Made by a program: the position numbers and the translations under genes
Virus record (IMG/VR): IMGVR_UViG_3300025770_000870
Location: 177,919 to 241,918 of that record
Length of the DNA stretch: 64,000 bases
DNA from: a virus
Direction: 5' to 3' (one strand)
The notes under the pieces: model-generated
Databases searched by the model: none
Told to the model about the DNA's origin: nothing
Seen by the model: the letters and a program-made list of their open reading frames with translations, nothing else
Shown: positions 4,849 through 62,416 of the stretch, in pieces
Position numbering within the stretch: the first letter of the stretch is position 1
Layout: every line of letters begins with the position of its first letter

Positions 4849-5442
4849 ATGAAGCATATTAGAACGTATGAAAAATATCGTATTGTAAAGAACAGATCTG
4901 AAATTATCAAAGAAGCTGTTCTACAAGTTAATGATATTTATAAAGTAAAGACAATGATTGATATTCCTCAATCTTTGATTAACTCTTATGTTAAGAAAGT
5001 TAAAGAAACTACTGGTAAGAACCTAAGACAATTTTTTGGTGATGTTGACATCGCTGAGGAAATTGTTAAATATATTAATATGAACAATCTTGATATAGAG
5101 AAGATTCCAGGTGGAGCTTTGATGGGTGGTCAAGAAGAAACACAAGTTCAGCAAGCTCAACCAGAAGCACAACCACAAGCTCAAATGCAACCTCAGGTTC
5201 AACCAGAAGCACAACAAACACAACCACAAGGTGAGTTTGAAGAGCCACAAGCAGATGCTCAAGTACAGGCTCAAGATGGTCAAGTACAAGTTCAAGCAGA
5301 TGGTCAAACACAAGTACAAGATGGTCAAGTACAGGCTCAAGATGGTCAAGTACAGGCTCAAGATGGTCAAACACAAGGTCAAGTACAAGGTCAAGCACAA
5401 GACGAAGATGAAGAAGAGGACGAAGAAGAACTTCCACTTTAA
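4849..5442 (+). CDS. Capsid-targeting-peptide protein with Gln-rich repeat tail
   Basis: 197 residues. It starts MKHIRTYEKY, one of the shared N-terminal peptides proposed here to direct proteins into the prohead. A small helical domain follows (residues 14-90, including ETTGKNLRQFFGDVDIAEEIV). The last 100 residues are low complexity: QAQ and VQAQDGQ repeats, then an acidic cluster DEDEEEDEEE. The strong Gln/Glu bias resembles scaffold or internal head proteins. It is transcribed alone, with a TATATAAC box upstream and a terminator after it. No enzymatic motif is visible. Confidence 0.75.
   Translation: MKHIRTYEKYRIVKNRSEIIKEAVLQVNDIYKVKTMIDIPQSLINSYVKKVKETTGKNLRQFFGDVDIAEEIVKYINMNNLDIEKIPGGALMGGQEETQVQQAQPEAQPQAQMQPQVQPEAQQTQPQGEFEEPQADAQVQAQDGQVQVQADGQTQVQDGQVQAQDGQVQAQDGQTQGQVQGQAQDEDEEEDEEELPL
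5256..5400 (+). repeat. Imperfect 21-bp coding repeats (VQAQDGQ)
   Basis: The unit GTCAAGTACAGGCTCAAGAT recurs with small changes inside the Gln-rich gene. Three units are almost identical, and shorter CAAGGT/CAAGTA variants extend to 5400. The open frames in the other frames here are by-products of the repeat. Confidence 0.8.
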
Positions 5443-5465
5443 TTTATAGAAAATATTAAAAAATG

Positions 5466-5497
5466 AAACCCATCAAATAAACTTTGATGGGTTTTTT
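5466..5497 (+). terminator. Rho-independent terminator
   Basis: Perfect stem CCCATCAAA/TTTGATGGG with a 5-nt loop, followed by six T, directly after the Gln-rich gene. Confidence 0.9.
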
Positions 5498-5503
5498 ATT
5501 TAA

Positions 5504-5510
5504 TATATAC
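5504..5510 (+). promoter_or_regulatory. TATATAC late-promoter-like element, 5 nt from the ATG
   Basis: TTAATATATAC ends 5 nt before the start of the gene at 5516. There is no room for a ribosome binding site. Confidence 0.55.
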
Positions 5511-5515
5511 TTACA

Positions 5516-6130
5516 ATGAGATACCTAAAGGCATATGAGAATTATAATACTGATACAACACTTATAATTGTTGATGTTCAAAAATCATTTAAGAAATTCT
5601 TTTCTGAGATGTACATAAATAAATTAAAAAAGTATTGTAATGAATTTGTCAATGTTTATCAAATCTGGGATAACCATACAGATGGTAAAATTGTTGATAA
5701 AGACTACTTATATGATAAAAATCCTGAAATTCCAATACATGATGATTTATACCATTTTCCTAACCAAAGTGAGTTAATCGAAAAGAGATATAATTATGAT
5801 GTAGATGCTGATTTTTATAAAAAAATTCTAGATAAGGAAGTTTATAAAGAGATTAGTGATAAAGAGGATAATAAACAATTAAAAAAAGGTGACTTTTTCC
5901 GAACAAAAGAGGGAACTATTATAGTTTATATTGGTAATAATCATAAATGGTTCCAAGTTCCTATTAAATTATATAAACATCTTGTTGAATTAAGGGGTAA
6001 GAGTGTTATTATTGTTGGTGGTTCTGATTCTGAATGTTTGGAGGATATTATTACATCTGCTGAAAGTCTTGGTGTTAATATTAAAAGAGATTATAAGTAT
6101 ATCTACTCAGCAAATCATTGTCCTATCTAA
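5516..6130 (+). CDS. Isochorismatase-like (cysteine hydrolase fold) protein with capsid-targeting peptide
   Basis: 204 residues. The start MRYLKAYENY is the shared N-terminal peptide. The rest reads as a diverged isochorismatase/nicotinamidase fold. The first strand is TLIIVDVQKSF with the catalytic-type Asp (about residue 20). Near the end, VIIVGGSDSECLEDI has a cysteine at residue 174 where the family has its nucleophile, followed by the usual helix and SLGVNIKRDY. The middle (residues 60-130) does not match the family and the usual active-site lysine is not obvious. Whether it is active is unknown; a packaged hydrolase acting on a small metabolite is possible. Confidence 0.6.
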   Translation: MRYLKAYENYNTDTTLIIVDVQKSFKKFFSEMYINKLKKYCNEFVNVYQIWDNHTDGKIVDKDYLYDKNPEIPIHDDLYHFPNQSELIEKRYNYDVDADFYKKILDKEVYKEISDKEDNKQLKKGDFFRTKEGTIIVYIGNNHKWFQVPIKLYKHLVELRGKSVIIVGGSDSECLEDIITSAESLGVNIKRDYKYIYSANHCPI

Positions 6131-6504: not shown

Positions 6505-6523
6505 GTGTTTATATATTAATTTT

Positions 6524-6532
6524 TATATATAC
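6524..6532 (+). promoter_or_regulatory. TATATATAC element, 4 nt from the ATG
   Basis: TATATATAC is followed by TCAT and then ATG at 6537. With T4 late-promoter geometry, transcription would start at the A of the ATG. A minus-strand TATATAA box for gp25 lies about 10 bp away (around 6510-6518). Confidence 0.6.
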
Positions 6533-6536
6533 TCAT

Positions 6537-7106
6537 ATGAAATATCTGAAATTTTTTGAATCTTATAGAGGAACTGTATCTGTTAATAGAGATATTTTTA
6601 TAAAGGTTTTATCTGATTATAGTAGTATATATGATGATGGTTTGGTTACACAATTAGAGGAATTGGGATTTGAGAGTAGTGATGTAATTGCTGATATGAT
6701 AGAAGATTCATTGAATAATGGTGATCGTATAAGTTTAGAGGCTATAACACTTTTAGTTGATGAGATATCAAGAGGTAATTCTGAGAGGAGCGCAAGTAAG
6801 TTACAGGATATTTATAATGAATGTGAATATCATTTAAATAATAGTACTGTTGATGTTATTGATAACTTGAAAGATATATTCTCTGAATATGTTGATGATA
6901 ATAAAGCAATGATATATAAAACTGGTGATAAATCTGACAACCGATGTGTCGTTTTACTAAAACAGGTTGATGTTTTGTTAAATATCGATTTCGATGAAGT
7001 ATTAAATAGGGTTAAAGAATTTGTAAACTTAAAACATATGGAATATGTTGGTAGTAAAGACCGAATTAAATTTGAGTTTTATGAAAGATATCCTGATGAA
7101 GATTAG
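6537..7106 (+). CDS. Capsid-targeting-peptide protein of unknown function
   Basis: 189 residues, starting MKYLKFFESYRGT; FFE before Ser fits a gp21-type cleavage site at residue 8. The rest is acidic and mainly helical, with no recognised motif (for example LEELGFESSDVIADMIEDSL and VDDNKAMIYKTGDK). The gene overlaps the end of the convergent clamp-loader gene by 4 nt. The proposed location is inside the virion head, from the N-terminal peptide alone. Confidence 0.7.
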   Translation: MKYLKFFESYRGTVSVNRDIFIKVLSDYSSIYDDGLVTQLEELGFESSDVIADMIEDSLNNGDRISLEAITLLVDEISRGNSERSASKLQDIYNECEYHLNNSTVDVIDNLKDIFSEYVDDNKAMIYKTGDKSDNRCVVLLKQVDVLLNIDFDEVLNRVKEFVNLKHMEYVGSKDRIKFEFYERYPDED

Positions 7107-15608: not shown

Positions 15609-17306
15609 ATGCCATCATATAATAACTTTAACGGAGCAGCAGGAGCAGATTCTAACTTCGCTGCTAGTAATTCAGCAGTTGAGAATAAAGGACTATTTAG
15701 TCGTATTCTAAGAAACCTTTCAAATTATGGTATGAACTATGATGATATGATCATCAGAAATCAAGTTGGTATCGGTATAAATGAGGATCCATATTCAGCT
15801 AGAGGTAATTCGATGTATGATTTCTTTAGTCAGAGAGCTGTGGCTTCTGTTTTGAATAGAAAGTCAATACCTTATCTAGATAAAGCATATGGTGATAAGA
15901 GAAGAATACTTAGAGAGTATTCTATTAAGGATGAAATAAGAGATTTTGTGAGTACTATATCGGATGAGTCTATTGTTTTTAATGATGATGTTGCCTTTTG
16001 CTCACCTAAATCACTATCAAATGAATATCCACAAGAAGTAAGAGATAAGTATCAAGAATATTTCGAAAAAATATACAATAAGTATGGATTTTCTGATGGT
16101 ATTAGTGCTTGGGATATGATGAGAGATTTCCTTATTGATGGTTATATAGCTATTGAGATTATATATGATGATAAGAAAAAGAATATTGTTGGTTTCAATA
16201 GAATGAGACCAGAAACTTTAGTACCTGCTTATGAACCAGCTATTGGACACTTATGGATACAATTTCCAGAGGATCCACAATTAAGGAGAATATTTTTAGA
16301 TTCACAAATAGTTTATATATCATATTCAACACAGAATGATTATTCAGAAACTTCTTATGTTGAAGGTTTGATAAAACCATATAATCAATTAAAAATATTA
16401 GAACAAACTAGAATAATGTTCAATGTTATAAACGCTACTCTTTATCAAAAATTTACAATTCCTATTAAAGGATTGTCTAGACAAAGAGCAGAAGAACAAA
16501 TAGGTCAGTTAATACATGATTATTCAGAAGAAGTTGAGTGGGATGATAGTCTAGGAACACTTACTATCAATGGTGCTAAGCACTTACCTTACAATAAACA
16601 AATATGGTTTCCTGAGGGAGATGCTGGTACTCCTAATATGGAGATGGTTTCACCAGAAGGTCATGATTTGAATGATGAAACTATGTTATCTTGGTTTTAT
16701 AAGTCTCTTAAAAGAGCTTCTAAGATACCTATATCTAGATTCGAAGGTGAAAATGGTGGTGGTAACCTTTTTGGTGACGCTTCTGAGATGACTAGAGATG
16801 AGATTAAATTTCACAATTTTATTAGTAGATTAAGAGCTAACTTTAAAGAACTTATTGTTAAGCCACTTAAATTACAAATGTTAATTGAGTTTCCTGAATT
16901 AACAGAGGATGAGGTATTTACTAATAGAGTTGATATTGACTTCTATACTAATCAAATATTTGAAGATTGGAAGAAGATAAATAACTTAGCTAAGAAATCA
17001 GAAATAGTTGGAACTTTATTAGGTGTTATGAGAACAGATGAAAAACCTTATTTTCACATTGAGTGGATAATGGATAATATATTCAAGCTTACTCCAGAGG
17101 AGAAAGCTGAGAATGACAGGTATTGGGCTCGTGATGCTGGTGAAGGTGTTGGTTCTGGTGAAGAAGGCGCTGAAGGCGGAGATGATGGAGGCGACTTTGG
17201 TGAATCTGGTGATGTTGGTGGTGTAGATGATGCTGGTGGTGGAGATGATGGTGGAGATGCTGGTGGAGATGCTGGTGGAGATGACGGTGGAGAATTTGAA
17301 TTCTAA
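15609..17306 (+). CDS. 20: Portal protein (T4 gp20-like)
   Basis: Dodecameric portal through which DNA enters and leaves the head. 565 residues (T4 gp20 is 524). Recognisable gp20 stretches include the N-terminal Asn/Ser region, RNQVGIGINEDPYSARGNSM, SIKDEIRDFVSTISDESIV, IDGYIAIEIIYD, the stem/clip region SYVEGLIKPYNQLKILEQTRIMFNV, and the PISRFEGENGGGNLFG DASEMTRDEIKF loop. The last 60 residues are almost only Gly, Asp and Glu repeats, not present in T4. It has its own TATATAAC promoter-like box and a terminator. Confidence 0.94.
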   Translation: MPSYNNFNGAAGADSNFAASNSAVENKGLFSRILRNLSNYGMNYDDMIIRNQVGIGINEDPYSARGNSMYDFFSQRAVASVLNRKSIPYLDKAYGDKRRILREYSIKDEIRDFVSTISDESIVFNDDVAFCSPKSLSNEYPQEVRDKYQEYFEKIYNKYGFSDGISAWDMMRDFLIDGYIAIEIIYDDKKKNIVGFNRMRPETLVPAYEPAIGHLWIQFPEDPQLRRIFLDSQIVYISYSTQNDYSETSYVEGLIKPYNQLKILEQTRIMFNVINATLYQKFTIPIKGLSRQRAEEQIGQLIHDYSEEVEWDDSLGTLTINGAKHLPYNKQIWFPEGDAGTPNMEMVSPEGHDLNDETMLSWFYKSLKRASKIPISRFEGENGGGNLFGDASEMTRDEIKFHNFISRLRANFKELIVKPLKLQMLIEFPELTEDEVFTNRVDIDFYTNQIFEDWKKINNLAKKSEIVGTLLGVMRTDEKPYFHIEWIMDNIFKLTPEEKAENDRYWARDAGEGVGSGEEGAEGGDDGGDFGESGDVGGVDDAGGGDDGGDAGGDAGGDDGGEFEF

Positions 17307-20234: not shown

Positions 20235-20261
20235 TGTTATTTTTAGAATTTACATTGTCAA

Positions 20262-20268
20262 TATATAC
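20262..20268 (+). promoter_or_regulatory. TATATAC late-promoter-like element of gene 21
   Basis: 26 nt before the ATG of the prohead protease-scaffold gene. Confidence 0.55.
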
Positions 20269-20294: not shown

Positions 20295-22436
20295 ATGAAA
20301 CCGGTTTTAATAGTAGAAAATTCACAAAACCAACTTATTAGAGAGAGTAACTCTGCTAATAAGGGGTACACATTAGGTGGTACATTCACCGAATTCGGTG
20401 TCAAGAACAGAAATGAACGTATTTATTCGGCTGATAAATTTTTACCAGCATTGAATGAAATGAATGAACGTATAAGTGGCTTAGGTGCTGTTTATGGTGA
20501 ATTCGATCATCCAGACGTTTTTGACACATCACTCTCAAGAGCCTCGCATATTATCACAAAGGCAAGTTATATCCAAGAGAAAAATATCGTAGCGGGAGAG
20601 ATTAAATTACTAAGTACTTACTGGGGTAAGGAAGCAAAAGCACTTGTCGATGACGGGTGTCCTGTATTCGTTTCTTCAAGAGCTGCTGGTATTACTGAAT
20701 CTGATGGTTCAGTTTCCCTTAAAAAATTATTTACTTATGACATTGTTGCTGACCCAGGATTTGCGTCAGCTAAAATGGATGTTAAGGTACTTAATGAGTC
20801 ATTGGGATATAATGACGAAAAATCTAACTTTAGGATATATGAAATGTCCGATGAGTCAAAAATAAATGAGTTATTCAATATGAACAAAAATGAGTTTGTA
20901 ACAAAAAAACAATTGACTGACTACTCTAACTACTTAGTTAACGAATTAGCATCAACTAAGAAGACAGTTAATACAGCCATTACTAAAGGTAATGTAGCTC
21001 CAAAGAAATTGGAACAATTATTAGAGTATTATGAAGAGTTAAACAACTCTAATTCAAAAGTAGCTAAGTATCTTGATTATTTATCAGAAAAGGTACAAAT
21101 AGTAGTTAATGAGAATAAATCATTAAAGAAGACAACTGAGAAATTAGTTAAACATAATGATTATTTAGCAGAAAACTTAGAGAAATCTATTAATTACGCT
21201 GAGTATTTAGGTGAAAACTTAGATAAGAACATTGATTATTCTGAGTATTTAGCTGAGAATTTAGACAAGAACATATCTTATGCTGAGTATTTAGCTGAGA
21301 ATGTTGATAAAAACATTTCATATTCTGAGTATTTAGCTGAGAGTTTAGATAAGAACATTGCTTATTCTGAATATATCGCTGAGAATTTAGACAAAAACAT
21401 CGCTTATTCTGAGTATATCGCTGAGAATTTAGACAAAAACATTGCTTACTCTGAGTATATCGCAGAAAACGTTGATAATAATATCGCTTATTCTGAATAC
21501 TTATCTGAGCATGTTGAAGGTAACATTGCTTACTCTGAGTATATCGCAGAACATTTAGATGATAACATCGCTTATTCTGAGTATGTAGCAGAGAATCTTG
21601 ACAAATCAATTAATTATCAAGGATTGATAGTTGAGAGATTAAACGGAGATAAATTATTTGAATCTGTTGAAGGATCTGAAAGCTTCCCATCTCTAGACGA
21701 TGCTGGTTTTGAAGCTTTTGATGATGAAGAAAACAAAGATGAAGAAAATTGTAATCTTGAAGTATCATTAGATAATAATGATGAAGAAAATGGTGTTGAA
21801 GAATCTGTTGAGAATACAGATGATTACGCAACAGAAGAAAACAAAGATGAAGAAAATAAAGATGAAGAAAACAAAGAAGATAAAACTGAAAGCCATGATA
21901 TGGTAAACGGTGATAGTGATTCTGAATTATCTGAATCTATTGATAAACTAATTGAAGAAGCTAAAAAACGAAAAGTTTCTGAAACAACAGATGTGAATTT
22001 CTTGAAGTTCATGTCTAAATCACAAGTTGACAGCTTTTACGCTTTGTCAAATGACGAACAAGAGTCAGTTAAAGTCCATATAAACGAAAGAGACTACTTT
22101 ACTCAAAAAGATGTTTTGTTATTGATATCTGAAGCACTATCAACTAAGAACGAATCTCTTGAAGAGAGAATAATCAGATTGATGCCTGAAAACACAAAGC
22201 CAATCTGGGAACAATTAAACGACACTTCTAAGAAATCTATCTTGTCACAAGCTAGATTATATCCAGAAGACGTTTTAACTACTGAGGCACAAGTTGAACA
22301 TTTTTGGTCAACTAGAAAGCTAAAGACAAATGAGTCTGTAACAAAGAAACTTGTATCACATGAAAGCCTTATCCAAGAAGATAAACTTTCAGATAATGAT
22401 GTTCAAGCGATAATGGAAAGATTCAAAAATATTTAA
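20295..22436 (+). CDS. 21: Prohead protease fused to a scaffold-like tail (T4 gp21 + core protein)
   Basis: 713 residues; T4 gp21 is 212. Residues 1-175 are the prohead protease: YTLGGTFTEFGVKNRNERIY, the catalytic-type His in VYGEFDHPD, and the serine in VFVSSRAAGI (T4 uses a His/Ser centre). Then a helical linker, eleven 14-residue repeats of the type YSEYIAENLDKNIA (287-440), an acidic EENKDEENKDEEN stretch, and a folded helical C-domain. The repeats and acidity suggest the tail builds the scaffolding core that T4 makes from separate gp22/67/68. N-terminal LIVE and LIRE motifs could be self-cleavage sites. It directly precedes gp23. Confidence 0.9.
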   Translation: MKPVLIVENSQNQLIRESNSANKGYTLGGTFTEFGVKNRNERIYSADKFLPALNEMNERISGLGAVYGEFDHPDVFDTSLSRASHIITKASYIQEKNIVAGEIKLLSTYWGKEAKALVDDGCPVFVSSRAAGITESDGSVSLKKLFTYDIVADPGFASAKMDVKVLNESLGYNDEKSNFRIYEMSDESKINELFNMNKNEFVTKKQLTDYSNYLVNELASTKKTVNTAITKGNVAPKKLEQLLEYYEELNNSNSKVAKYLDYLSEKVQIVVNENKSLKKTTEKLVKHNDYLAENLEKSINYAEYLGENLDKNIDYSEYLAENLDKNISYAEYLAENVDKNISYSEYLAESLDKNIAYSEYIAENLDKNIAYSEYIAENLDKNIAYSEYIAENVDNNIAYSEYLSEHVEGNIAYSEYIAEHLDDNIAYSEYVAENLDKSINYQGLIVERLNGDKLFESVEGSESFPSLDDAGFEAFDDEENKDEENCNLEVSLDNNDEENGVEESVENTDDYATEENKDEENKDEENKEDKTESHDMVNGDSDSELSESIDKLIEEAKKRKVSETTDVNFLKFMSKSQVDSFYALSNDEQESVKVHINERDYFTQKDVLLLISEALSTKNESLEERIIRLMPENTKPIWEQLNDTSKKSILSQARLYPEDVLTTEAQVEHFWSTRKLKTNESVTKKLVSHESLIQEDKLSDNDVQAIMERFKNI
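21153..21614 (+). repeat. Eleven tandem 42-bp coding repeats
   Basis: Eleven 42-bp units encode 14 residues each: aromatic, acidic, Y-(L/I)-(A/G)-E, N-(L/V)-(D/E), then K/N-N-I-A/S/D. Central units 21363-21446 are nearly identical; edge units diverge. A Tyr and a hydrophobic recur at fixed spacing, as in a coiled coil. Confidence 0.92.
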
Positions 22437-22457: not shown

Positions 22458-22482
22458 GGTAAAAATCAAGAATTTGTGGGTT

Positions 22483-22491
22483 TATATATAC
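22483..22491 (+). promoter_or_regulatory. TATATATAC late-promoter-like element of the major capsid gene
   Basis: It is followed by a 30-nt A-rich leader and the ATG at 22522. The A-rich leader without Shine-Dalgarno fits strong expression in Bacteroidota. Confidence 0.6.
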
Positions 22492-22521: not shown

Positions 22522-24252
22522 ATGTCACACATTAGAATAGACAAACAAAAAGCTATGAAGAAATGGTCTCCAGTATTAGAGAACATGGGAGTTGCTGGTG
22601 AAGATAGATTGGATTGGATGTCAGAATATGCTGAATTTCACTCAATCAATGAAAACGCTTACGCAAACGCTTCAAACGTATCGGGTATGGGAGCTGTAGT
22701 AGCTGCACAACCTAATTCATTAGCTGGTAACACAATTGGCAATTACGCTGACTCAACTGGTTCAGGTGATGTTGGTCAAAACCTTTTACCGGTAGCGATG
22801 AAAATAGCAGCTCAAACAATCGGTTTAGATTTAGTAGCTGTTAAACCTTCTCCAGGTCCAAAAATTGATTTATTATATATCGACTTTAGATATGATGATG
22901 CTCATTTAGGAGATTCAGACGAAAGACCACAAGTCTTTAAGATTGCACCAAACGCTACATTTTTAACTACTGGTGCTGGTGGTATGACAGCAGTTATCGC
23001 TGGATTAAGAGCTCAATTAGCTACGAATACAATCACTGAAACAGTTGGTGGTTTAACTGGTAGAATGTGGAATGATATCACAGATGGTTCAGATGTAGTT
23101 GTAGAACCAACACCTTCAAAAGAAGGAAAAGTTGAATTTTTAGGATTCTCTAGAATTGATGGTTATCCAATGTTCAGAGCTTACAGACAGATGAATACAT
23201 CTCACACAGATGTTGGTTCAGCTCAAGCAAACTGGGGATTTGACCCGACTAGAAACACATTTAGTCCTACAATGTCAATGGCTTCTCAAATTACTGATTT
23301 AGGAGATGTTACTTTAACTGATGAGCCTACTATTGAATTAGTATCAGCTCTTGAAGATCACATTCCTGGTTTCTCTGCAAACTGGATGTCGGATGCTACT
23401 GGCCCTGCTGGTAACTATCCAATGGATAGAGAAATGGACGATAAAAGATACTCTGGTATCATCGGACCAAAAATTAGTTCTAAAACAGTTGCCGTAGGTA
23501 CTATTGAAGTATCTTCAGCTCTTAGAAGAACTGAAATTGAAGATATCAAAGCTAACACTGGTATGGATATCGTTCAAAAAATGGAGTCAATTCTTGTTAA
23601 TGAATTATCTCAAACAATCTCTAAGCAAATTGTTGCTAAGATATTTGAAATGGGTTCACTTAACAGATTATCTGCACCAGCTTATGTTGGAACAGCACCG
23701 GCACCATTAGCGGGACAAACAATCTTTGACTTAAACACAGCTTATGCAACTGTTGCTGCTGGTAATGGAAACGTTGGTGGTGAAACTACACACGCTGTTC
23801 AAAGAAAGCTTGTAACTAAGATAGCTCACGCTTCTAACTACATCGCTACAGAGGGACGTGTTGGTCCAGCTCAATACCTTATTACAAATGGGGGATTAGC
23901 AGCAGCACTTTCTGATATCTCTGGTTATACAATTAACCCAGTGAAATCAAAAATCAATGGTCAAGGTCAATTATACCCAGTAGGTTCAATTGGAGATATT
24001 TCAATATATGTTGATCCATATATGAGATATAACGACAATAGAATTGCTCTTGGTAGAAAGAACAATCCAGATCAACCAGGTATTATTTTTGTACCTTACT
24101 TAATGGCTCAGTCTATATCTGTAATTTCTGAAGCGACTTTCGCTCCTAGAATGTTACTAAGATCTAGATACGCTGTAACAGAAGTTGGTTGGTTCCCACA
24201 AAAACAATTTATGACTATCGAAGTTACAGATGTGAATACACTTCTTAACTAA
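22522..24252 (+). CDS. 23: Major capsid protein (T4 gp23-like)
   Basis: 576 residues (T4 gp23 521). The N-terminal delta peptide aligns with T4 (KKWSPVLENMGV; T4 KWKPLLEGEGL). SINE before NAYANASNVSGMG is the likely gp21 cleavage site near residue 50, matching T4 TE/AE. HK97-fold landmarks: LLPVAMKIAAQTIGLDLVAVKP, RRTEIEDIKANTGMDIVQKME, VGPAQYLITN, and the C-terminal IYVDPYMRYNDNRIALGRK and SEATFAPRMLLRSRYAV. It follows gene 21 closely, has its own promoter element and a strong terminator. Codon choice looks more uniform than in its neighbours, as expected for a highly expressed gene. Confidence 0.95.
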   Translation: MSHIRIDKQKAMKKWSPVLENMGVAGEDRLDWMSEYAEFHSINENAYANASNVSGMGAVVAAQPNSLAGNTIGNYADSTGSGDVGQNLLPVAMKIAAQTIGLDLVAVKPSPGPKIDLLYIDFRYDDAHLGDSDERPQVFKIAPNATFLTTGAGGMTAVIAGLRAQLATNTITETVGGLTGRMWNDITDGSDVVVEPTPSKEGKVEFLGFSRIDGYPMFRAYRQMNTSHTDVGSAQANWGFDPTRNTFSPTMSMASQITDLGDVTLTDEPTIELVSALEDHIPGFSANWMSDATGPAGNYPMDREMDDKRYSGIIGPKISSKTVAVGTIEVSSALRRTEIEDIKANTGMDIVQKMESILVNELSQTISKQIVAKIFEMGSLNRLSAPAYVGTAPAPLAGQTIFDLNTAYATVAAGNGNVGGETTHAVQRKLVTKIAHASNYIATEGRVGPAQYLITNGGLAAALSDISGYTINPVKSKINGQGQLYPVGSIGDISIYVDPYMRYNDNRIALGRKNNPDQPGIIFVPYLMAQSISVISEATFAPRMLLRSRYAVTEVGWFPQKQFMTIEVTDVNTLLN

Positions 24253-24326: not shown

Positions 24327-24716
24327 ATGATTAAAAAGTATAATTATTTCTTTGAGTCTAAGAAGACTAAGTTCCCTAATATTAAGAAAGTTGAAGTAGA
24401 AGGATTCTTTATTCATATAGGTAGAGACTCCAAATCTAACGACCACTTAACATTTAACGTTGCTGATGATAAAGACATCTGGATGCACGCTAAGGGTGTT
24501 CCTGGGAGTCATGTTATTATAAGAGTTAGAGAAAACTTACCAACTCAAGAAATACTAAGATATGTTGCTGAATTAGCTAAAAAGAATAGTAAAGCTAGTA
24601 AAGAAGATAATGTAACTGTTGTTTATTGCCAAAGAAAATTTGTTAAGAAAGAAAGTGGTATGAATGAGGGTCAAGTAAGAGTTGATTATATCAATGCCTA
24701 CGAAATCGTAGTTTGA
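24327..24716 (+). CDS. NFACT-R (RqcH/Rqc2 RNA-binding-domain) protein with capsid-targeting peptide
   Basis: 129 residues. MIKKYNYFFESKK is the shared N-terminal peptide with FFE before Ser. The rest is one NFACT-R domain: FFIHIGRDSKSNDHLTF, then DIWMHAKGVPGSHVIIR (the hallmark 'WxHAkgxpGSHVvi' motif), the helix after it, and VTVVYCQRKFVKK. In cellular RqcH/Rqc2 this domain contacts tRNA and the 60S/50S surface during ribosome quality control; NFACT-N, the helix-hairpin-helix and the coiled coil are absent here. A free, possibly virion-delivered NFACT-R is unusual. It lies right after the capsid gene. Confidence 0.88.
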   Translation: MIKKYNYFFESKKTKFPNIKKVEVEGFFIHIGRDSKSNDHLTFNVADDKDIWMHAKGVPGSHVIIRVRENLPTQEILRYVAELAKKNSKASKEDNVTVVYCQRKFVKKESGMNEGQVRVDYINAYEIVV

Positions 24717-26110: not shown

Positions 26111-26605
26111 ATGAAGAATATTAAGAATTATAAGAAGTTCCTAGAAAAGGAAAATATAAGAGAGGATGAGAACTCATATCTTAATGATGATATTAACGAT
26201 CCTTGGGGTGATCCAAGTGATAGATGGTCTGATCGGTCGGATTATGATGATGAGGGTTACCAGTATCTTAATGGTGGTGAGTCTAGATCTAGTGAGGATG
26301 ATAATGATGATAGAGATGATGTTCAACATTTACTTTACTTGTTAAGAACAATGTTTAAGAACAATGGTATTGAGGTTGAAATAGAACATAAGAACTTAGA
26401 TATTATGATATATTGTGTTATGAATAGAAAGGAAAGATTAAAAGATGTTATTAATGTTTTAGATGTGGCTAATAAATTGAAGAAGGATGTATTACCACAA
26501 TATGATTGTGAGTTTGAGATGTGGGAAACTAGAAAAGGTAAACCAATGTTAACCTTTAACTTCTTTTATGATGAAGGTTTGAACGATGATCGTGTTCCAT
26601 TTTAA
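26111..26605 (+). CDS. Acidic protein with possible capsid-targeting peptide
   Basis: 164 residues, starting MKNIKNYKKFLEKEN, similar to the shared peptide though without the aromatic-x-E core in the usual place (FLE fits loosely). Then an Asp/Ser/Gly-rich region (DRWSDRSDYDDEGYQYL) and a folded C-terminal half with MRTMFKNNG-type helices and FEMWETRKGKPMLTFNFF. The gene abuts the metallopeptidase and may share its transcript. No function recognised. Confidence 0.62.
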   Translation: MKNIKNYKKFLEKENIREDENSYLNDDINDPWGDPSDRWSDRSDYDDEGYQYLNGGESRSSEDDNDDRDDVQHLLYLLRTMFKNNGIEVEIEHKNLDIMIYCVMNRKERLKDVINVLDVANKLKKDVLPQYDCEFEMWETRKGKPMLTFNFFYDEGLNDDRVPF

Positions 26606-29665: not shown

Positions 29666-30113
29666 TTAATTTAATCTTTAAGTTACCATTTCCTTTTATT
29701 AGTCTATGATAAACACCCATAGGTATTTCTACAATACCCTCAATTACTTTTGGAAGTTGATTATCGATTTGAATCATCCAATCAGTTTCATTTATAGACT
29801 CTATAATTCTATCTTCTCTATCACGATGCCAAATAAATTCACCTGAATCAGTTTCTTGTTTAAATTCTCTGATAAATGTATTCTCTGATAACTGTTCTTC
29901 AATAAATGGTAATACAACGTCTGGGTTTTCATTTTGCCATTCTTTCAAAGCTTTCATATCAAATTCTTTTAATTCATTATCATATCCACATTGGTGACAT
30001 AAATATTTTCTATCATCATTTATTTCAATTTCCCAATTCCAATCACAGTTATCACAAGTAATTTCTTTGATTTTAGCGATTTCGAATATTTTATATGTTT
30101 CTAAGTGTTTCAT
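29655..30113 (-). CDS. Zinc-ribbon protein with capsid-targeting-like start
   Basis: 152 residues. MKHLETYKIFEIAK begins like the shared peptide (FE at 10-11). A zinc ribbon follows, ITCDNCDWNWEIE and YLCHQCGYDNE (CxxC at about 19-22 and 37-40). The C-terminal part, FIWHRDREDRIIES, then WMIQIDNQLPKVIEGIVEIPMGVYHRLIKG, is a conserved pattern of phage proteins with a cupin-like HR ... P.G..HR element. The function is not known. It is the last gene of a minus-strand cluster from 31708 to 29655. Confidence 0.7.
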   Translation of the reverse strand: MKHLETYKIFEIAKIKEITCDNCDWNWEIEINDDRKYLCHQCGYDNELKEFDMKALKEWQNENPDVVLPFIEEQLSENTFIREFKQETDSGEFIWHRDREDRIIESINETDWMIQIDNQLPKVIEGIVEIPMGVYHRLIKGNGNLKIKLIKK

Positions 30114-30133: not shown

Positions 30134-30703
30134 TTACCAATACCCAGGGTAGGTTCGCCCATTCCAAAGATGTCCGTATTTCGTGAGACGACAAGCCCAA
30201 TATCCAGCAGTTGTTCTATCCTTTTTGGTTGAGCATTTATGTCTAGCCGCGAAGCTCTTTCTAGCATCTGGGTTACTAACTTTAGCTGTTAGTCCACCAT
30301 GTACATCTCCAAAGGCAAGTTTTTTAACATTACCAGTCTTTGGGTTTTTAACATAAACGTGATATTTCTTAGTCCCGCCTCTTTTAGGATAATTTAATTT
30401 AACTTCTTTACCCTTATACTCTGCTTCATTTAATTCTTGAATATTTTCTATTGGTAAATCAAGTGGTACTAATTCATTATTAAACACTCCGAACCTACCA
30501 ATATCTGTTGATTCGAATAATTCATTATCTATATCACACAATTCAACAGTATTAGAATCGAATAACTTTCTAGCTTCTTTTATTACTTCATAAAAAGCAT
30601 CTGAACCAGGTCTAAAAACATTTTCAGTTATAGGTTTAGAACTATCTAAATGGTATTTTAGATTCTCTGATATTTCTTTATATTGATTAAATTTGTGTAT
30701 CAT
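30134..30703 (-). CDS. Basic-tailed phage virion-type protein (DUF5872-like)
   Basis: 189 residues. MIHKFNQYKEISENL resembles the shared N-terminal peptide. The C-terminal half is characteristic: LNYPKRGGTKKYHVYVKN, LAFGDVHGGLTAKVSNPDARKSFAARHKC, then TAGYWACRLTKYGHLW and a final PGYW. I recognise this block (Gly/Lys/Arg-rich, CS.K.D..T.GYW.CR) from T4-like phage proteins of unknown function. It is strongly basic and could bind nucleic acid inside the head. Its ATG overlaps the previous gene's stop by 4 nt. Confidence 0.75.
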   Translation of the reverse strand: MIHKFNQYKEISENLKYHLDSSKPITENVFRPGSDAFYEVIKEARKLFDSNTVELCDIDNELFESTDIGRFGVFNNELVPLDLPIENIQELNEAEYKGKEVKLNYPKRGGTKKYHVYVKNPKTGNVKKLAFGDVHGGLTAKVSNPDARKSFAARHKCSTKKDRTTAGYWACRLTKYGHLWNGRTYPGYW

Positions 30704-31119
30704 TCTTCTACTTCATTTTCACCATCACTTGTAAATTCAGAGAAGTTAATAACACCAACACCATCACTCTCAACACATTCGCATCCGGGGCATCCACATT
30801 CACAGCCAGCTTCTCCGGTGCAATTATCACAACAAGCACAATCTCCTGATAAAGTTTCATCACTTTCTTCTTCTAATTCATTCTCCATATCAATATTCTC
30901 AATATTCTCAATATTATCGATGTTAATCGTTATGAAGTTTTCAAACTTAACAATCTTATCCATTTCTTTTTTAAATGCCTTATCAACCTTTTCTTGGTCC
31001 TCAACAGATGTTGTGAATCCAGGTTCAACATCTTTATCAACTAGTTCTTTAGCATCAAATGTAATTTCTTGTGTTTCTTCTTCTTTTTTGGCTTCATTAA
31101 ACCTTTTAATCTTTTTCAT
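30700..31119 (-). CDS. Metallothionein-like cysteine-cluster protein with capsid-targeting peptide
   Basis: 139 residues. MKKIKRFNEAKKEEE carries the shared peptide with FNE before Ala. An acidic helical middle includes IDNIENIENIDM. Then nine cysteines lie between residues 94 and 115 (SGDCACCDNC ... GCECGCPGCEC), mostly as CxC and CC, as in metallothioneins. It probably binds zinc, cadmium or copper, or an Fe-S centre. Acidic residues continue to the end. It is in a translationally coupled minus-strand run. Confidence 0.75.
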   Translation of the reverse strand: MKKIKRFNEAKKEEETQEITFDAKELVDKDVEPGFTTSVEDQEKVDKAFKKEMDKIVKFENFITINIDNIENIENIDMENELEEESDETLSGDCACCDNCTGEAGCECGCPGCECVESDGVGVINFSEFTSDGENEVEE

Positions 31120-31127: not shown

Positions 31128-31334
31128 TTATTTCTTTTGGTACATTCCTTCCAGTACTTGGTACATAGCATCAACAACTCCATAAGAGTCAACTCCGAAG
31201 TCACCTTCATATTTTTCAGCAATTGAGATTATATCCTTTTCAAGTTCTTCCCATTTATCTCCAGATCTTTGTTTTTTTAGAACATCATCCCAATTAAACT
31301 CTTCACTTTCGTTAAATTTCTTTAAGTGTTTCAT
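31128..31334 (-). CDS. Small protein with capsid-targeting peptide
   Basis: 68 residues; starts MKHLKKFNESEEFNWDDV, a typical copy of the shared peptide (FNE before Ser). The remainder is an acidic helical segment ending LEGMYQKK. Its ATG overlaps the preceding gene's stop, consistent with a polycistronic unit. If cut after FNE, about 60 residues would remain in the head. Confidence 0.7.
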   Translation of the reverse strand: MKHLKKFNESEEFNWDDVLKKQRSGDKWEELEKDIISIAEKYEGDFGVDSYGVVDAMYQVLEGMYQKK

Positions 31335-43659: not shown

Positions 43660-44109
43660 ATGGGATTTAAAAAGTTAGTTAATTACTACGTATTACGCAA
43701 ATCTTTAAAAGAAATCGAGATGAATAGAATTTTAGAAAAAATATACAAGAAAATAAAAATTTCTACTAAAGAAAAGAAATTTTTGGATTTATATAATCGT
43801 ACTACCGAAGAGGTTGCTAAGGATTTGATGTTCTTGTCTAAAAATGCAACTTCTAGAAAGGTTAAAGAAATATTAGAAAGAGGTAAGAAAGTCATTTGTG
43901 ATTTACATGATAGGGATGGTAAAATTGGACTTGAGATACTTAGTATTGAGAATAATGTCGATTCTGTTACATGTGATGTTATTATGAGAAATGAGACACA
44001 TCAATTACATGATAGATTTTTATATAATATTATTTATAATAATATAAAAAAAGAGTATTCATTACAAGAACAAGACGAATATTATGAAAAAATAGAAGCT
44101 ACGAAATGA
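43660..44109 (+). CDS. Unknown 149-residue protein
   Basis: Helical and basic at the start (MGFKKLVNYYVLRKSLKEIEMNRILEKIYKK), then a mixed C-terminal half with IGLEILSIENNVDSVTCDVIM. No family recognised. It overlaps the following capsid-targeting-peptide gene by 4 nt (ATGA) and opens divergently from the tape-measure candidate. Confidence 0.62.
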   Translation: MGFKKLVNYYVLRKSLKEIEMNRILEKIYKKIKISTKEKKFLDLYNRTTEEVAKDLMFLSKNATSRKVKEILERGKKVICDLHDRDGKIGLEILSIENNVDSVTCDVIMRNETHQLHDRFLYNIIYNNIKKEYSLQEQDEYYEKIEATK

Positions 44110-44378
44110 TAAAGAAATTTAAACAATTTAATGAAGAAATATCTGGTACTGAATTGGTTGGTCCTATTGGTCCTGCTTATGGTGAGACGGGGTTACAGAA
44201 TAAAACCATAAATTCACATGACACAAATGTTATTTATTCAGAGATGGATTCTAAGATATATACAATAGATGAATATAATGATATTTATGGTGAGTACCTT
44301 AAATTTGGTGGATCTCCGTTAGATGGATTTACAAAAGAAAATATAGATATAATATTGGATTTTTTACAAACTAATTAA
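44106..44378 (+). CDS. Small protein with capsid-targeting peptide
   Basis: 90 residues; MIKKFKQFNEEISG is a typical shared peptide (FNE before Glu). A short Gly/Pro-rich linker follows (GPIGPAYGETG), then a region with aromatic and acidic residues ending IDIILDFLQTN. It is coupled to the preceding gene by a 4-nt overlap. Function unknown beyond proposed head packaging. Confidence 0.7.
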   Translation: MIKKFKQFNEEISGTELVGPIGPAYGETGLQNKTINSHDTNVIYSEMDSKIYTIDEYNDIYGEYLKFGGSPLDGFTKENIDIILDFLQTN

Positions 44379-51611: not shown

Positions 51612-52136
51612 TCAGATTCTTTTATCTGGACTTACAAAATCATTATAGGTGTCTGCCTTTACAACGAGGTAGGCATCTTCTAGTTCATACCAATTTCCTT
51701 CATCCACATCATCACCTCCTAATCCTCTATTAGCAACATCATCAGTAAAAACTTTGAACTTATAAATTGAATAACCACCATCAAAATAAACAGCGATAAC
51801 TTCATCACCGTCCTTAACAGAATCTCTTTCATCAGAAAGTTCTTTTAATTCATTAACATCAATTTCACTTGATCTTATTTTTTTGAAATCTTTTCCTAGA
51901 TTTTGATGAACTTGTTTAGATATTAACTTAGCCATTTTCTCTTGAAGGTCACCCAATTCAAATGATTGTCCTGGTGTTATATCTCCTGATACTGTATCAA
52001 ATTCTCCGTGTATATCAAAAAATAAATCATTAATTTTATCTTCTAATAAATCTAATGTATATTTATAAATATCATCCTCTGTATGAGAAACCTTTTCAAA
52101 AGACTCAGTTATATATTCTGACCATTTTTTAATCAT
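51612..52136 (-). CDS. Protein with capsid-targeting peptide
   Basis: 174 residues. MIKKWSEYITESFEK is the shared peptide in a slightly longer form, with ITE before Ser as the predicted gp21 cleavage site (residue 11). This is very like the T4 internal protein leader, whose FIAE precedes Ala. A helical acidic middle follows, then a beta-containing C-terminus (DEVIAVYFDGGYSIYKFKV and ENWYELEDAYLVVKAD-like). The gene overlaps the 50-residue gene upstream by 4 nt. No enzyme motif. Confidence 0.7.
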   Translation of the reverse strand: MIKKWSEYITESFEKVSHTEDDIYKYTLDLLEDKINDLFFDIHGEFDTVSGDITPGQSFELGDLQEKMAKLISKQVHQNLGKDFKKIRSSEIDVNELKELSDERDSVKDGDEVIAVYFDGGYSIYKFKVFTDDVANRGLGGDDVDEGNWYELEDAYLVVKADTYNDFVSPDKRI

Positions 52137-55412: not shown

Positions 55413-55808
55413 ATGAAATATTTAAAGACGTTTGAAAATTACTCTCCAGTAAATGAAGAGGAAGAAGGAATAAGAAAGTTCTTTACTGGTCATGACAGTA
55501 GTGATGATAGAGATAAGGCTATGGTAGCTTTCAATAAAGCTTTAGATGATGCTGAAGAAGCTGCAAATAAAAATCCAAAGGGTTATTCGTTTAACAGAGA
55601 ACGTTTAGAAAAAGAAGCTAGTGAAAATAACTATAAAGGTGGATTAAGAATCCAAAGAGGTGGTAGAAAAGACAGATCACCCGGTCAAGCATCCGCTAAT
55701 TCGAGTAGAATGTACGTTGTTTATGACGATGGTGTTACTGGATTTGTAGATGTGTTTGTAAAACCAGCAGCTGCTAATAGAAAAGATAGTGGATTTAATA
55801 GACCATAA
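55413..55808 (+). CDS. Protein with capsid-targeting peptide and basic C-domain
   Basis: 131 residues. MKYLKTFENYSPVNEEEEG is the shared peptide (TFE before Asn). The rest is basic and low in hydrophobics: KNPKGYSFNRERLEKEAS, then GGLRIQRGGRKDRSPGQASANSS, RMYVVYDDGVTGFVDVFVK. It could bind DNA in the head. It has two promoter-like elements and its own terminator, so it is transcribed independently. Function otherwise unknown. Confidence 0.72.
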   Translation: MKYLKTFENYSPVNEEEEGIRKFFTGHDSSDDRDKAMVAFNKALDDAEEAANKNPKGYSFNRERLEKEASENNYKGGLRIQRGGRKDRSPGQASANSSRMYVVYDDGVTGFVDVFVKPAAANRKDSGFNRP

Positions 55809-60606: not shown

Positions 60607-60636
60607 AAAAAGAGACTCGATTGAGTCTCTTTTTTG
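60605..60636. terminator. Bidirectional terminator
   Basis: A-run, AGAGACTC/GAGTCTCT stem with GATT loop, T-run; the convergent minus gene ends 18 bp downstream. Confidence 0.9.
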
Positions 60637-60653
60637 TTTTATATATCTGTTAA

Positions 60654-60995
60654 TTATTTCTTTTCTATTGTTACTTCATAATAAGTACCATTTCTACCAC
60701 CTACACTAAGTACTGGAAATTTCTCTTTCATTTCTTTGAGAATTTCCTCATCAAAAGGCATATATACATAAAAAGCTTCTTTACCATCATTTTTCCATCC
60801 ATCTCCATTCCAAATGAATGCTGTTTTATCTGACCCAGGATCACTTACACCCTTGAACTTTTTACCTAAATCATGACCCTCATTACCTGAGTTGATATCT
60901 TTAACTTCTAAATCATTGTTTTGTAAGAAGGATTTAGCCATGTCAATTTCTTTAGATTCTACACTTTCGTTAAATTTTAACCAATTCTTAATCAT
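60654..60995 (-). CDS. Protein with capsid-targeting peptide
   Basis: 113 residues. MIKNWLKFNESVESKEIDM is the shared peptide (FNE before Ser). A short lipase-like alpha/beta C-domain follows (GGWKNDGKEAFYVYMPF, EMKEKFPVLSVGGRNGTYYEV). The ATG overlaps the previous stop by one base, so it is coupled to the next capsid-targeting-peptide gene. No catalytic motif is certain. Confidence 0.7.
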   Translation of the reverse strand: MIKNWLKFNESVESKEIDMAKSFLQNNDLEVKDINSGNEGHDLGKKFKGVSDPGSDKTAFIWNGDGWKNDGKEAFYVYMPFDEEILKEMKEKFPVLSVGGRNGTYYEVTIEKK

Positions 60996-61468
60996 TATTT
61001 CTTTTTCTTTTTAGCTAAGATTGCTTTTTGTAATCCAGCTGGAAGTTTCTTTTGACCCGCAGTTAATCCTTTGGTATCTACTTTATCTTCCTTCTTATCT
61101 TCCTTCTTATCTTTAGTATCTTTCTTACCTTTAACATCTTTCTTATCATCCTTATCAACATCTTTACCTTCTTTTTTCTTACCTTTTTGTTTATCTAAGT
61201 AAGCTTTTAACCCAGCGTTCATGCCTTTTTTCTCAACTACTTGTGATTCTTCGTCACCCCAGAGTCTTATTTTTCTTTGGTTTTCTTTTTCTTCTAAATC
61301 TTCTTCTTCTTCATCTGATACGGAACCTAACTGTCCTTCAAAATCTTCAATACCTTCAACATCATCGATTAAATCTGTATTTTCTTCTTCCGGATTGATA
61401 TCATCTTCATTATTAAATCTACCAAGATCTCTAGGATCGTAGTTTTCAAATTTCTTTAGGTATTTCAT
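60995..61468 (-). CDS. Lysine-rich protein with capsid-targeting peptide
   Basis: 157 residues. MKYLKKFENYDPRDLGRF is the shared peptide (KFE before Asn). An acidic stretch follows (EEEEDLEEKENQR), then a lysine/aspartate-rich tail of about 70 residues built of KDDKKD and KDTKDKKEDKKED units and ending KAILAKKKKK. The highly basic C-terminus would bind packaged DNA, like T4 internal proteins. Transcribed first in the minus-strand pair. Disordered, no enzymatic motif. Confidence 0.75.
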   Translation of the reverse strand: MKYLKKFENYDPRDLGRFNNEDDINPEEENTDLIDDVEGIEDFEGQLGSVSDEEEEDLEEKENQRKIRLWGDEESQVVEKKGMNAGLKAYLDKQKGKKKEGKDVDKDDKKDVKGKKDTKDKKEDKKEDKVDTKGLTAGQKKLPAGLQKAILAKKKKK

Positions 61469-61603
61469 ATATGTTAATATTTTTTATAACTTATATATTA
61501 AATTATATAATGTAATTTCTTGATTTATCTTCTTTTGTTAATGTTTTTAAAAAAAAACATTTTATTTCACCTTTTTTCTAGGTGGTTTTTAATATATATT
61601 AAT

Positions 61604-62416
61604 ATGAATAGTATAAAGAGATATGGTGAATATGTGAGTTTCGATGACATGGCCTTTGAGTTTGTTGACTCATTCCAAACGATGATAAAAGAGAATGATG
61701 AGTTGGATGATGATGGTGATTGGAAAACACATTGGAAAAAATTTAAAAACGATTTAAAATTACACGGTGGTCTTATCGGTACATTTGGTGCTGGTATCGG
61801 TGCTTTCATACCCGTTGTTCAATCAATGATGGGTAATATGAATATATCAACCGAGGTCACTCTTGAAATTTCTGTATTACTCACTATATGTTCATTGACT
61901 ATAATTTATTTAGAAGAAAAGAAATTTAAAAATTATGAGGAAGAAGCTTTATTAACAAAAGATTCTAAATCTATGTTAGAAGAATTGAAGATGAGAGGTA
62001 TTGGAAACGGCCTTGTTAAATTGGTTATCAAATCTTTTGAATCTGTGACTAATATATTTTCGGTTATTGGAAAACATTTAGGAGCTCTTGTTGGAGGTGT
62101 TATTGATATGTTTACTTATACAGCTTTAATGATTCCTGTTATGAATGGTATATTGTATTTAATTGGTAAGTATGAACTTACTCCTGAAACAGTTATTCAA
62201 AATCTTATAGGCCTTGCTGCTGGTATAGGTACATTAGTTGCTAAACATGGCATAAATTATATAATTAATAAGATTAAAGGAAAATTCAAAATAGAAAAAG
62301 GTGATGTCCTTGATGAACTCGACACACCAAAAATCCAAAAATTTAATCTTTATGGATCCGATATCGATGATATGTTTGATGATATTGAACCTATAAACGA
62401 TGAGAACTTAATTTAA
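61604..62416 (+). CDS. Membrane protein with capsid-targeting-like start
   Basis: 270 residues from the ATG used here. MNSIKRYGEYVSFDD resembles the shared peptide (KRYGEY) without a clear cleavage site. Four hydrophobic segments: 59-77 (GLIGTFGAGIGAFIPVVQS), 85-101 (LEISVLLTICSLTIIYL), 166-190 (HLGALVGGVIDMFTYTALMIPVM) and 205-225 (LIGLAAGIGTLVAKHGI). Acidic loops follow. It may be an injected pore or superinfection-exclusion protein; no motif proves it. The promoter-like TATATAT is 5 nt away. Confidence 0.6.
   Translation: MNSIKRYGEYVSFDDMAFEFVDSFQTMIKENDELDDDGDWKTHWKKFKNDLKLHGGLIGTFGAGIGAFIPVVQSMMGNMNISTEVTLEISVLLTICSLTIIYLEEKKFKNYEEEALLTKDSKSMLEELKMRGIGNGLVKLVIKSFESVTNIFSVIGKHLGALVGGVIDMFTYTALMIPVMNGILYLIGKYELTPETVIQNLIGLAAGIGTLVAKHGINYIINKIKGKFKIEKGDVLDELDTPKIQKFNLYGSDIDDMFDDIEPINDENLI

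What the first reader, a model, noticed from the sequence alone, without database searches (positions are those of the whole stretch)
4849..61648. About 15 unrelated proteins share a short N-terminal peptide resembling the T4 capsid targeting sequence
Seen: starts such as MKYLKTFENY, MKYLKKFENY, MRYLKAYENY, MKYLKFFESY, MKHIRTYEKY, MKHLKKFNES, MKKIKRFNEA, MIKKFKQFNE, MIKNWLKFNE, MIKKWSEYITE and MIKKYNYFFES occur in genes at 4849, 5516, 6537, 24327, 31119(-), 31334(-), 44106, 52136(-), 55413, 60995(-) and 61468(-). Weaker forms are at 26111, 30113(-), 30703(-) and 61604. The sequences after the peptide are unrelated. Known: T4 internal proteins IPI-III and Alt start MKTYQEFIAEA, a targeting peptide cut by gp21 after x-x-E. 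gp21 and a capsid protein with a comparable SINE/N site are in this window. Inference: this phage packages a large, varied set of proteins, including an NFACT-R domain, a cysteine hydrolase fold, a zinc-ribbon and a metallothionein-like protein.
Basis: partly seen in the sequence, partly recalled or inferred. Interest (0 to 1): 0.9.

Follow-up and report, generated by a model that had tools for sequence, protein, structure and literature searches.

The report
Giant-phage tag for packaging cargo proteins
Some of the largest known bacterial viruses put a short, removable-looking address label at the front of dozens to more than a hundred different proteins, and the label matches both phage T4's label for loading proteins into the virus head and a repeated segment of the giant phage's own head-building protein, so these viruses probably carry and inject a very large protein toolkit.

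Summary
All 15 listed genes, plus two more, pass a 5% FDR. In this phage's 242-kb fragment and five related huge phages (462-735 kb), 8-22% of genes carry the tag. The strictest pattern gives 29-80 genes per 462-735-kb genome against 2-3 in shuffles. The pattern is Φ4-x-x-[F/Y]7 followed by Glu. T4's capsid targeting sequence uses residues 4 and 7 for targeting and 8 and 10 for cutting.

Independent evidence for head packaging:
(1) 87-96% of tagged genes with their own upstream space (five of six genomes) sit behind an AATATATA box shared with capsid, protease and portal genes, but with few replication genes.
(2) The window's gp21-type protease continues into ~10 tandem 14-residue helical repeats, NLDKNIAYSEYIAE. 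A matrix built only from these repeats ranks the T4 IPIII/IPII targeting peptides first and second among 48,906 T4 7-mers.
(3) In tagged orthologues the peptide sequence turns over but the grammar persists. NFACT-R leaders are 18% identical, bodies 67%, and conservation starts at the E|S/G junction.

Best reading: a T4-type capsid-targeting system expanded to tens to over a hundred cargo proteins, with the tag mimicking one scaffold repeat. Packaging, cleavage and docking are inferred, not shown. The 'MKYLKTFE' form lacks a canonical cut site.

The parts
4849..4878 (+). tag MKHIRTYEKY of gene 4849-5442
   Evidence: score 15.5, AATATATA box at 4817-4824; W02 homologue also tagged
5516..5545 (+). 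tag MRYLKAYENY of gene 5516-6130
   Evidence: score 15.0; homologues tagged in W01, W02 and (different form, MKVIKFSDYLKES) W03; box 5502-5509
6537..6566 (+). tag MKYLKFFESY of gene 6537-7106
   Evidence: score 17.3; W01 homologue MKYLKKYKIFESY; box 6523-6531
15609..17306 (+). portal protein, with box at 15574-15581
   Evidence: phrog_213 E 8.8e-58; box
20260..20267 (+). late-type promoter box AATATATA of the protease-scaffold gene
20295..22436 (+). head maturation protease (gp21 type) fused to a repeat-bearing helical region
   Evidence: phrog_207 E 1.6e-30; hhalign to T4 gp21 E 7.6e-7 with GE(F/L)xHP and SSR conserved; invariant H72 and S127/S128
21174..21593 (+). ten tandem 14-residue repeats NLDKNIAYSEYIAE, predicted single long helix (aa 236-450)
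   Evidence: 11 matches to [FYW]xx[FYH][ILVM]xE, ten at 14-residue spacing; AF2 helix, pLDDT about 60-82 over aa 236-450 and 70-82 over the repeats
22482..22490 (+). late-type promoter box TTATATATA of the major capsid gene
22522..24252 (+). major capsid protein, T4 gp23 type
   Evidence: phrog_138 E 1.9e-24
22642..22656 (+). predicted capsid-protein cleavage site SINE|N
   Evidence: [IML]-x-E|N conserved in all six phages, without the aromatic P4/P7 of the tags
24327..24356 (+). tag MIKKYNYFFE of the NFACT-R protein (gene 24327-24716)
   Evidence: NFACT-R_1 E 8e-16; 24 of 29 distinct orthologues keep the grammar; residues 1-12 are the only stretch with pLDDT below 50, most of the rest above 90
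26111..26146 (+). tag MKNIKNYKKFLE of gene 26111-26605
   Evidence: score 11.6
30081..30113 (-). tag MKHLETYKIFE of gene 29655-30113
   Evidence: score 18.8
30674..30703 (-). weak tag MIHKFNQYKE of gene 30134-30703
   Evidence: score 5.5, near threshold
31093..31119 (-). tag MKKIKRFNE of gene 30700-31119
   Evidence: score 13.0; W01 homologue MKHIKRFNEA
31308..31334 (-). tag MKHLKKFNE of gene 31128-31334
   Evidence: score 20.9
   Evidence: score 6.7; homologues MRKIDTYIEFINE and MSRIRKYKEFITE; box 31713-31720
44106..44135 (+). tag MIKKFKQFNE of gene 44106-44378
   Evidence: score 16.3; W01 MIKKFYQFINE
52104..52136 (-). tag MIKKWSEYITE of gene 51612-52136
   Evidence: score 9.7; also a hit of the scaffold-repeat matrix, 13.6 bits
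55413..55442 (+). tag MKYLKTFENY of gene 55413-55808
   Evidence: score 18.6; box 55381-55388
   Evidence: score 6.8
60966..60995 (-). tag MIKNWLKFNE of gene 60654-60995
   Evidence: score 8.7
61439..61468 (-). tag MKYLKKFENY of gene 60995-61468
   Evidence: score 17.5; box 61492-61499
61604..61633 (+). tag MNSIKRYGEY of gene 61604-62416
   Evidence: score 8.6; box 61591-61598

Best explanation
The shared peptide is a capsid-targeting leader working like that of T4 internal proteins, on tens to over a hundred late proteins per phage. While the prohead core assembles, the leader (hydrophobic residue 4, x, x, F/Y at 7, then Glu; a short amphipathic helix) associates with the core, most likely with the long helical repeat region of the protease-scaffold protein, whose 14-residue repeats carry the same Y-x-x-[YF]-[IL]-x-E pattern. 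The gp21-type protease then cuts the scaffold repeats and most leaders after Glu, leaving the cargo in the head to be injected with the DNA. Shown here: the tag and its grammar, its conservation as a detachable module, the shared promoter class with head genes, the scaffold repeat resembling the T4 peptide, and the E|S/A signature. Inferred: packaging, cleavage, docking on the repeats, injection.
For: Numbers far beyond chance in six genomes. T4 positive control: ipII and ipIII recovered; crAss001 gives none; the P-SSM2 part gives bridging forms such as MKTYQQFNES. Motif peaks at residues 4 and 7 are the targeting residues of the T4 peptide (PMC9026906). Box AATATATA/TTATATATA: tagged 20/23, 48/50, 53/59, 26/28, 33/36, 7/12 against 8-28% of untagged genes; MCP in all six phages, protease and portal in five of six each, other structural families mostly; replication families 6/60. 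The protease has 11-15 internal copies of the motif in five phages, the most of any protein in each proteome, against at most 2-4 in shuffled proteomes. A matrix from the repeats alone ranks T4 IPIII/IPII leaders 1 and 2 of 48,906. T4 internal proteins co-purify with scaffold gp22 (PMC9026906). Form III: P3 I/L in 59 of 94, P1' Ser 7.3x, Ala 3.8x. Tag kept in 91% and 79% of orthologues of tagged genes (G000-W01, W01-W02) against 3-7% for orthologues of untagged genes. NFACT-R leaders 18% identical, bodies 67%, 24/29 keep the grammar against 0.9 in shuffles; Glu invariant, conservation starts at E|[SG]KK; leader disordered, body folded. Peptide-level selection: identical peptides encoded by many synonymous DNAs. 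Tagged proteins carry fewer predicted membrane segments in every genome, significant in one.
Against: No virion data exist. The form MKYLKTFE[SN] lacks I/L at P3 and has no clearly enriched downstream site, so some leaders may be cut elsewhere or not at all. Tagged bodies are slightly acidic, unlike the basic T4 internal proteins. No detectable homology of the repeat region to T4 gp22. Tag and protease co-occurrence in random fragments is inconclusive, 11/30 against 4/18. In the most distant phage, W05, the scaffold repeats are degenerate though its tags persist.
Confidence: 0.8

Rival explanations
1. The peptide is only a protease substrate or core-recognition site shared by all head proteins; resemblance to the scaffold repeats reflects common cleavage specificity, and cargo is loaded through another element.
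For: Tags, scaffold repeats and capsid protein all end in a hydrophobic-x-E site.
Against: The capsid site (SINE|N, IHE|N, LYE|N) has P3 and P1 but not the aromatic residues at P4 and P7 that tags, repeats and the T4 leader share; in T4 those positions direct targeting, not cutting.
Confidence: 0.12
2. The peptide addresses proteins to another place, such as a phage nucleus, the host membrane or the tail.
For: A shared short N-terminal peptide on unrelated proteins is what any sorting signal looks like.
Against: No tubulin/PhuZ-type protein in any of the six records; the tag matches the T4 capsid leader and the prohead scaffold repeat; tagged genes share the promoter box of head genes. Absence of chimallin was not tested.
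Confidence: 0.05
3. The shared starts are an mRNA or translation-initiation feature, or recent copies of one promoter-start cassette.
For: The box lies only 10-14 nt before many start codons and starts are AT-rich.
Against: Same peptide from many synonymous DNAs, codon use near the genome average; conservative F/Y, L/I changes; orthologues switch form while keeping the spacing.
Confidence: 0.02
4. The tag does mark proteins of the head interior, but many of them are structural core proteins rather than delivered effectors. This is compatible with the targeting part of the best explanation and differs only in what the cargo does.
For: T4 IPIII affects head assembly (PMC9026906); most bodies have no known domain, 22 Pfam families hit per 150 tagged against 73 per 150 matched untagged proteins.
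Against: Tagged genes turn over faster (W01-W04: 5% of tagged genes have an orthologue against 19% of untagged) and include NFACT-R, SET, HNH, PNK3P, LRR and ATP-grasp domains, more like accessory effectors.
Confidence: 0.2

Closest known systems
T4 internal proteins IPI-III and their capsid targeting sequence (Mullaney and Black 1996)
   Same: Short N-terminal peptide on otherwise unrelated small proteins; hydrophobic/aromatic residues at 4 and 7; Glu at the expected cut; gp21-family protease in the same genome; bodies highly variable with a conserved leader, as described for T-even phages (PMC3012670).
   Different: 29-80 tagged genes per 462-735-kb genome by the strictest pattern and up to 188 at 5% FDR, instead of three; several interchangeable leader forms (MKHLKKFNES, MKYLKTFES, MKHLKTYKIFES, MIKKWSEYITES); slightly acidic rather than basic bodies.
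T4 gp21/gp22 prohead core
   Same: gp21-family protease between portal and major capsid genes; long helical core region in the scaffold position.
   Different: Protease and repeat-bearing helical region are one protein; the core carries about ten tandem copies of a targeting-like motif; no sequence similarity to gp22 found.
phiKZ/SPN3US/201phi2-1 giant-phage head proteins
   Same: Large phage, many processed head proteins cut after Glu (19 processed proteins in 201phi2-1, PMC9026906).
   Different: Most of those propeptides are much longer than 10-20 residues (PMC5694885); here one short leader grammar is shared by hundreds of families.
P1 DarB N-terminal capsid signal
   Same: N-terminal residues direct a protein into a head.
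   Different: More than 9 residues needed and no common consensus among Dar proteins (PMC9024508).

Membership tests
T4-type capsid targeting sequence | N-terminal, about 10 residues, shared by proteins with unrelated bodies | tested here: met
   (561 body families)
T4-type capsid targeting sequence | hydrophobic/aromatic residues at positions 4 and 7 (targeting) | tested here: met
   L/I4 and F/Y7 are among the most informative positions; role of 4 and 7 from PMC9026906
T4-type capsid targeting sequence | cleavage signature (I/L)-x-E then a small residue | tested here: inconclusive
   present in forms III and IV, partly in I (F-N-E|S), not in II
T4-type capsid targeting sequence | protein found inside the virion head | not testable with these tools
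   no isolate or virion proteome
T4-type capsid targeting sequence | leader sufficient to package a foreign protein | not testable with these tools
   needs a fusion experiment
Prohead protease, peptidase S77 (T4 gp21) | sequence homology to gp21 with conserved His and Ser motifs | tested here: met
   phrog_207 E 1.6e-30; PF03420 only below its curated cut-off, 19.6 bits; hhalign to T4 gp21 E 7.6e-7 across GE(F/L)xHP and SSR; invariant in the alignments
T4 gp22 scaffold | homology to gp22 | tested here: not met
   hhalign probability 0.5%
T4 gp22 scaffold | position between protease and capsid genes; helical | tested here: met
   T4 order 20-67-68-21-22-23; here portal, protease+helix, MCP; AF2 helix aa 236-450
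T4-like late promoter | TATAAATA-like box upstream of virion genes | tested here: met
   AATATATA/TTATATATA box on structural, rarely on replication genes; T4 TATAAATA from PMC3014915; transcription timing not tested

The most novel reading that the evidence does not exclude
Cargo is loaded by mimicry of the scaffold: each leader is a stand-alone copy of part of one 14-residue repeat of the prohead core helix, so the core offers about ten equivalent docking sites per molecule, and any late gene can be turned into virion cargo by acquiring ten residues. Some of the largest known phages use this to carry on the order of a hundred different proteins into the host, and the T4 capsid targeting sequence is a remnant of, or converges on, the same principle.
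Probability: 0.5. Interest if true: 0.92.

Novelty: new variant of a known kind. Interest (0 to 1): 0.84.

Why it matters
If true, a single sequence rule predicts the internal cargo of uncultured megaphages, giving a functional handle on hundreds of orphan families. It suggests what T4's targeting peptide may bind (a motif repeated in the core), and offers a short address with many natural variants for loading proteins into very large capsids.

Tried and rejected
[quoted passage not shown] Looked for a fifth leader class, M..LLIEN: no excess over shuffles. Searched for homology of the repeat region with T4 gp22: none. Profile search of the protease against the PDB gave only a designed helical protein at E 0.0025; the fold search put T4 gp21 (5jbl) first, but weakly, E 0.16, because the model of the protease domain is poor.
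Full report
WHAT WAS CHECKED. The window is the last 64 kb of a 241,918-base virus fragment. Its relatives are huge phages: W01 LR745206.1 (634,780 bases), W02 LR756502.1 (642 kb), W03 LR756501.1 (735 kb), W04 LR756504.1 (636 kb) and W05 LR756500.1 (462 kb), found by the protein at 44424-45752 and all holding the protease. Huge phages above 634 kb were predicted to infect Bacteroidetes (PMC7162821). I fetched all six, called genes with one script, and analysed every N-terminus.

THE OBSERVATION. The 15 N-termini are as quoted. A fixed pattern, M-[KRI]-[KRHYTNI]1-2-Φ-x-x-[FY]-x0-2-[ED], matches 38/350, 80/914, 80/923, 44/962, 38/869 and 29/645 genes, against shuffled means of 1.2-3.1 and maxima of 6-9. 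Motif discovery run separately on each genome returns K2-[YH]3-[LI]4-K5-x6-[FY]7-[EN]8, most informative around residues 3, 4 and 7, in five genomes; W03 uses MIKKFxxFE instead. At 5% FDR, 77, 168, 188, 149, 70 and 63 genes are tagged, in 561 body families. The matrix was trained on the same genomes, so these larger counts may be somewhat optimistic; the pattern counts are the conservative figures. Tagged genes cluster (W02: 67 adjacent pairs against 28 expected).

POSITIVE AND NEGATIVE CONTROLS. The strict T4-type pattern finds ipII, ipIII and 61.1 in T4, none in crAss001, and in 120 kb of P-SSM2 MKSFKQFLEEA and MKSFSQFLTET; a looser pattern adds MKTYQQFNES there, an intermediate between T4's MKTYQEFIAEA and the MKHLKKFNES of this window.

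IT IS SELECTED AS A PEPTIDE AND AS A MODULE. Eleven copies of MKYLKKF have ten different DNA sequences and codon use is near the genome average. Among reciprocal best hits, 91% (G000-W01) and 79% (W01-W02) of orthologues of tagged genes are tagged, against 3% and 7% for untagged genes; forms are exchanged between orthologues, for example MKYIRTYESYSDN in W01 for MKVIKFSDYLKES in W03. The NFACT-R gene at 24327 is the clearest case: among 29 distinct orthologues from 80 loci collected by the protease, not by the tag, residues 2-9 are 18% identical and bodies 67%, yet 24 keep the grammar (0.9 expected, max 4). In the alignment of 22 of them the Glu is the invariant leader residue, and conservation starts at E|[SG]-K-K-x-K-F-P. 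In the predicted structure residues 1-12 are the only stretch below pLDDT 50, with most of the rest above 90.

TIMING. Tagged genes that have at least 45 bases of their own upstream space carry AATATATA or TTATATATA within 45 bases of the start in 20/23, 48/50, 53/59, 26/28, 33/36 and 7/12 cases; untagged genes in 8-28% (P 5e-5 to 1e-23). The box lies mostly 10-14 or 25-34 bases before the start. The same box precedes the major capsid gene in all six phages, protease and portal in five of six each, and most other structural families tested (27 of 37 gene copies in the structural set). Replication families (polymerase, primase, helicases, reductase, SSB) have it in 6 of 60 copies, four of them one helicase. 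T4's late promoter is TATAAATA (PMC3014915). Late expression is therefore likely, though no transcript was measured.

THE SCAFFOLD CONNECTION. The window gene 20295-22436 is the head maturation protease (phrog_207 E 1.6e-30; hhalign to T4 gp21 E 7.6e-7 across the His and Ser motifs). It lies between portal and major capsid genes, where T4 has 67-68-21-22, and continues into a region predicted to be one 215-residue helix made largely of ten tandem 14-residue repeats. Among 108 distinct repeat units the pattern is N-L-D-K-N-I-x-Y-S-E-Y-[ILV]-A-E with Y8 99%, Y11 100%, E14 100%, and nearly every protease has nine to twelve copies. In five of the six phages this protein has the most internal motif copies of any protein in the proteome, 11-15; shuffled proteomes reach 2-4. 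A seven-position matrix built only from these repeats, scanned over all 48,906 T4 7-mers, ranks YQEFIAE of IPIII and IPII first and second. The same matrix is enriched at N-termini of five of the six phages themselves (6- to 27-fold, on small counts; none in W02) and hits MIKKWSEYITES in the window.

CLEAVAGE. In form III leaders (MKHLKTYKIFES), where P3 and P1' were left free by the pattern, P3 is I or L in 59 of 94 and P1' is enriched for Ser 7.3-fold and Ala 3.8-fold; form IV behaves alike; form I is F-N-E|S; form II (MKYLKTFE) has mostly Thr at P3 and no strong downstream site. The capsid protein's conserved site is [IML]-x-E|N without aromatic P4/P7. So the aromatic positions shared by leaders, repeats and T4 peptide are not simply the cleavage site, which fits the T4 finding that residues 4 and 7 target while 8 and 10 process (PMC9026906).

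WHAT THE CARGO IS. Only 22 Pfam families are hit by 150 tagged proteins, against 73 by 150 length- and genome-matched untagged ones; tagged hits include SET, HNH, PNK3P phosphatase, LRR, M15 peptidase and ATP-grasp domains, and NFACT-R in the window. Predicted membrane segments are rarer in tagged proteins in each genome, 1-5% against 5-9% (significant only in W02). Tagged genes are less conserved between phages (W01-W04: 5% have an orthologue against 19%), which fits accessory, host-facing functions. T4 internal proteins are likewise described as a diverse set of defence proteins with only the leader in common (PMC3012670).

HOW IT MOST LIKELY WORKS. Shown: the tag, its grammar, its modular conservation, the promoter class shared with head genes, the resemblance of tag, T4 leader and scaffold repeat, and the E|S/A signature. 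Inferred: leaders join the prohead core by packing with the repeat helix, the protease then cuts repeats and most leaders after Glu, and the cargo is retained and injected. I put packaging into the head at about 0.8 and docking on the repeats at about 0.5.

LIMITS. No virion exists to analyse; all evidence is comparative. Gene starts come from my own caller. Docking on the repeats is inferred from sequence resemblance and from co-purification of T4 internal proteins with gp22; homology to gp22 was tested and not found. Form II leaders, acidic bodies and the degenerate repeats of W05 do not fit neatly. Full-text searches of a library of 5.4 million open papers found no description of such a leader in huge phages; subscription papers were not covered.

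Noticed in passing
W01, W02, G000 tagged genes (e.g. L007:8780-9331): About 20% of tagged families match a second motif pattern after the tag, like IxDIFxDLxDdGFxV, against 9% of untagged proteins: probably one large fast-diverging superfamily of unknown function.
   Followed up: partly
W01 460435-460635(-); W03 619760-620383(+): Small extra genes carrying three scaffold-type repeats (YSEYISE and similar) without a protease domain.
   Followed up: no
W01 gene 404, W02 gene 447, W03 gene 350: Proteins that resemble the N-terminal part of the major capsid protein; role unknown.
   Followed up: no
W03 11314-11850(-); W05 154840-155238(-): Short paralogues of the protease domain without repeats.
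   Followed up: no
W01 296645-296839, W02 323871-324068, W03 542927-543127, W04 473810-473998(-): Phage S21 ribosomal proteins here have no N-terminal extension and no tag.
   Followed up: yes
window 10-35 nt upstream of late genes, e.g. 5502-5509, 61591-61598: The late-type box AATATATA sits unusually close to start codons (10-14 nt), implying very short leader RNAs.
   Followed up: partly
window 20295-22436: Protease N-terminus MKPVLIVEN keeps a hydrophobic-x-E|N motif in five of six phages (W05 has LLIIER), reminiscent of the T4 gp21 LIE-9 site noted in PMC9026906.
   Followed up: partly
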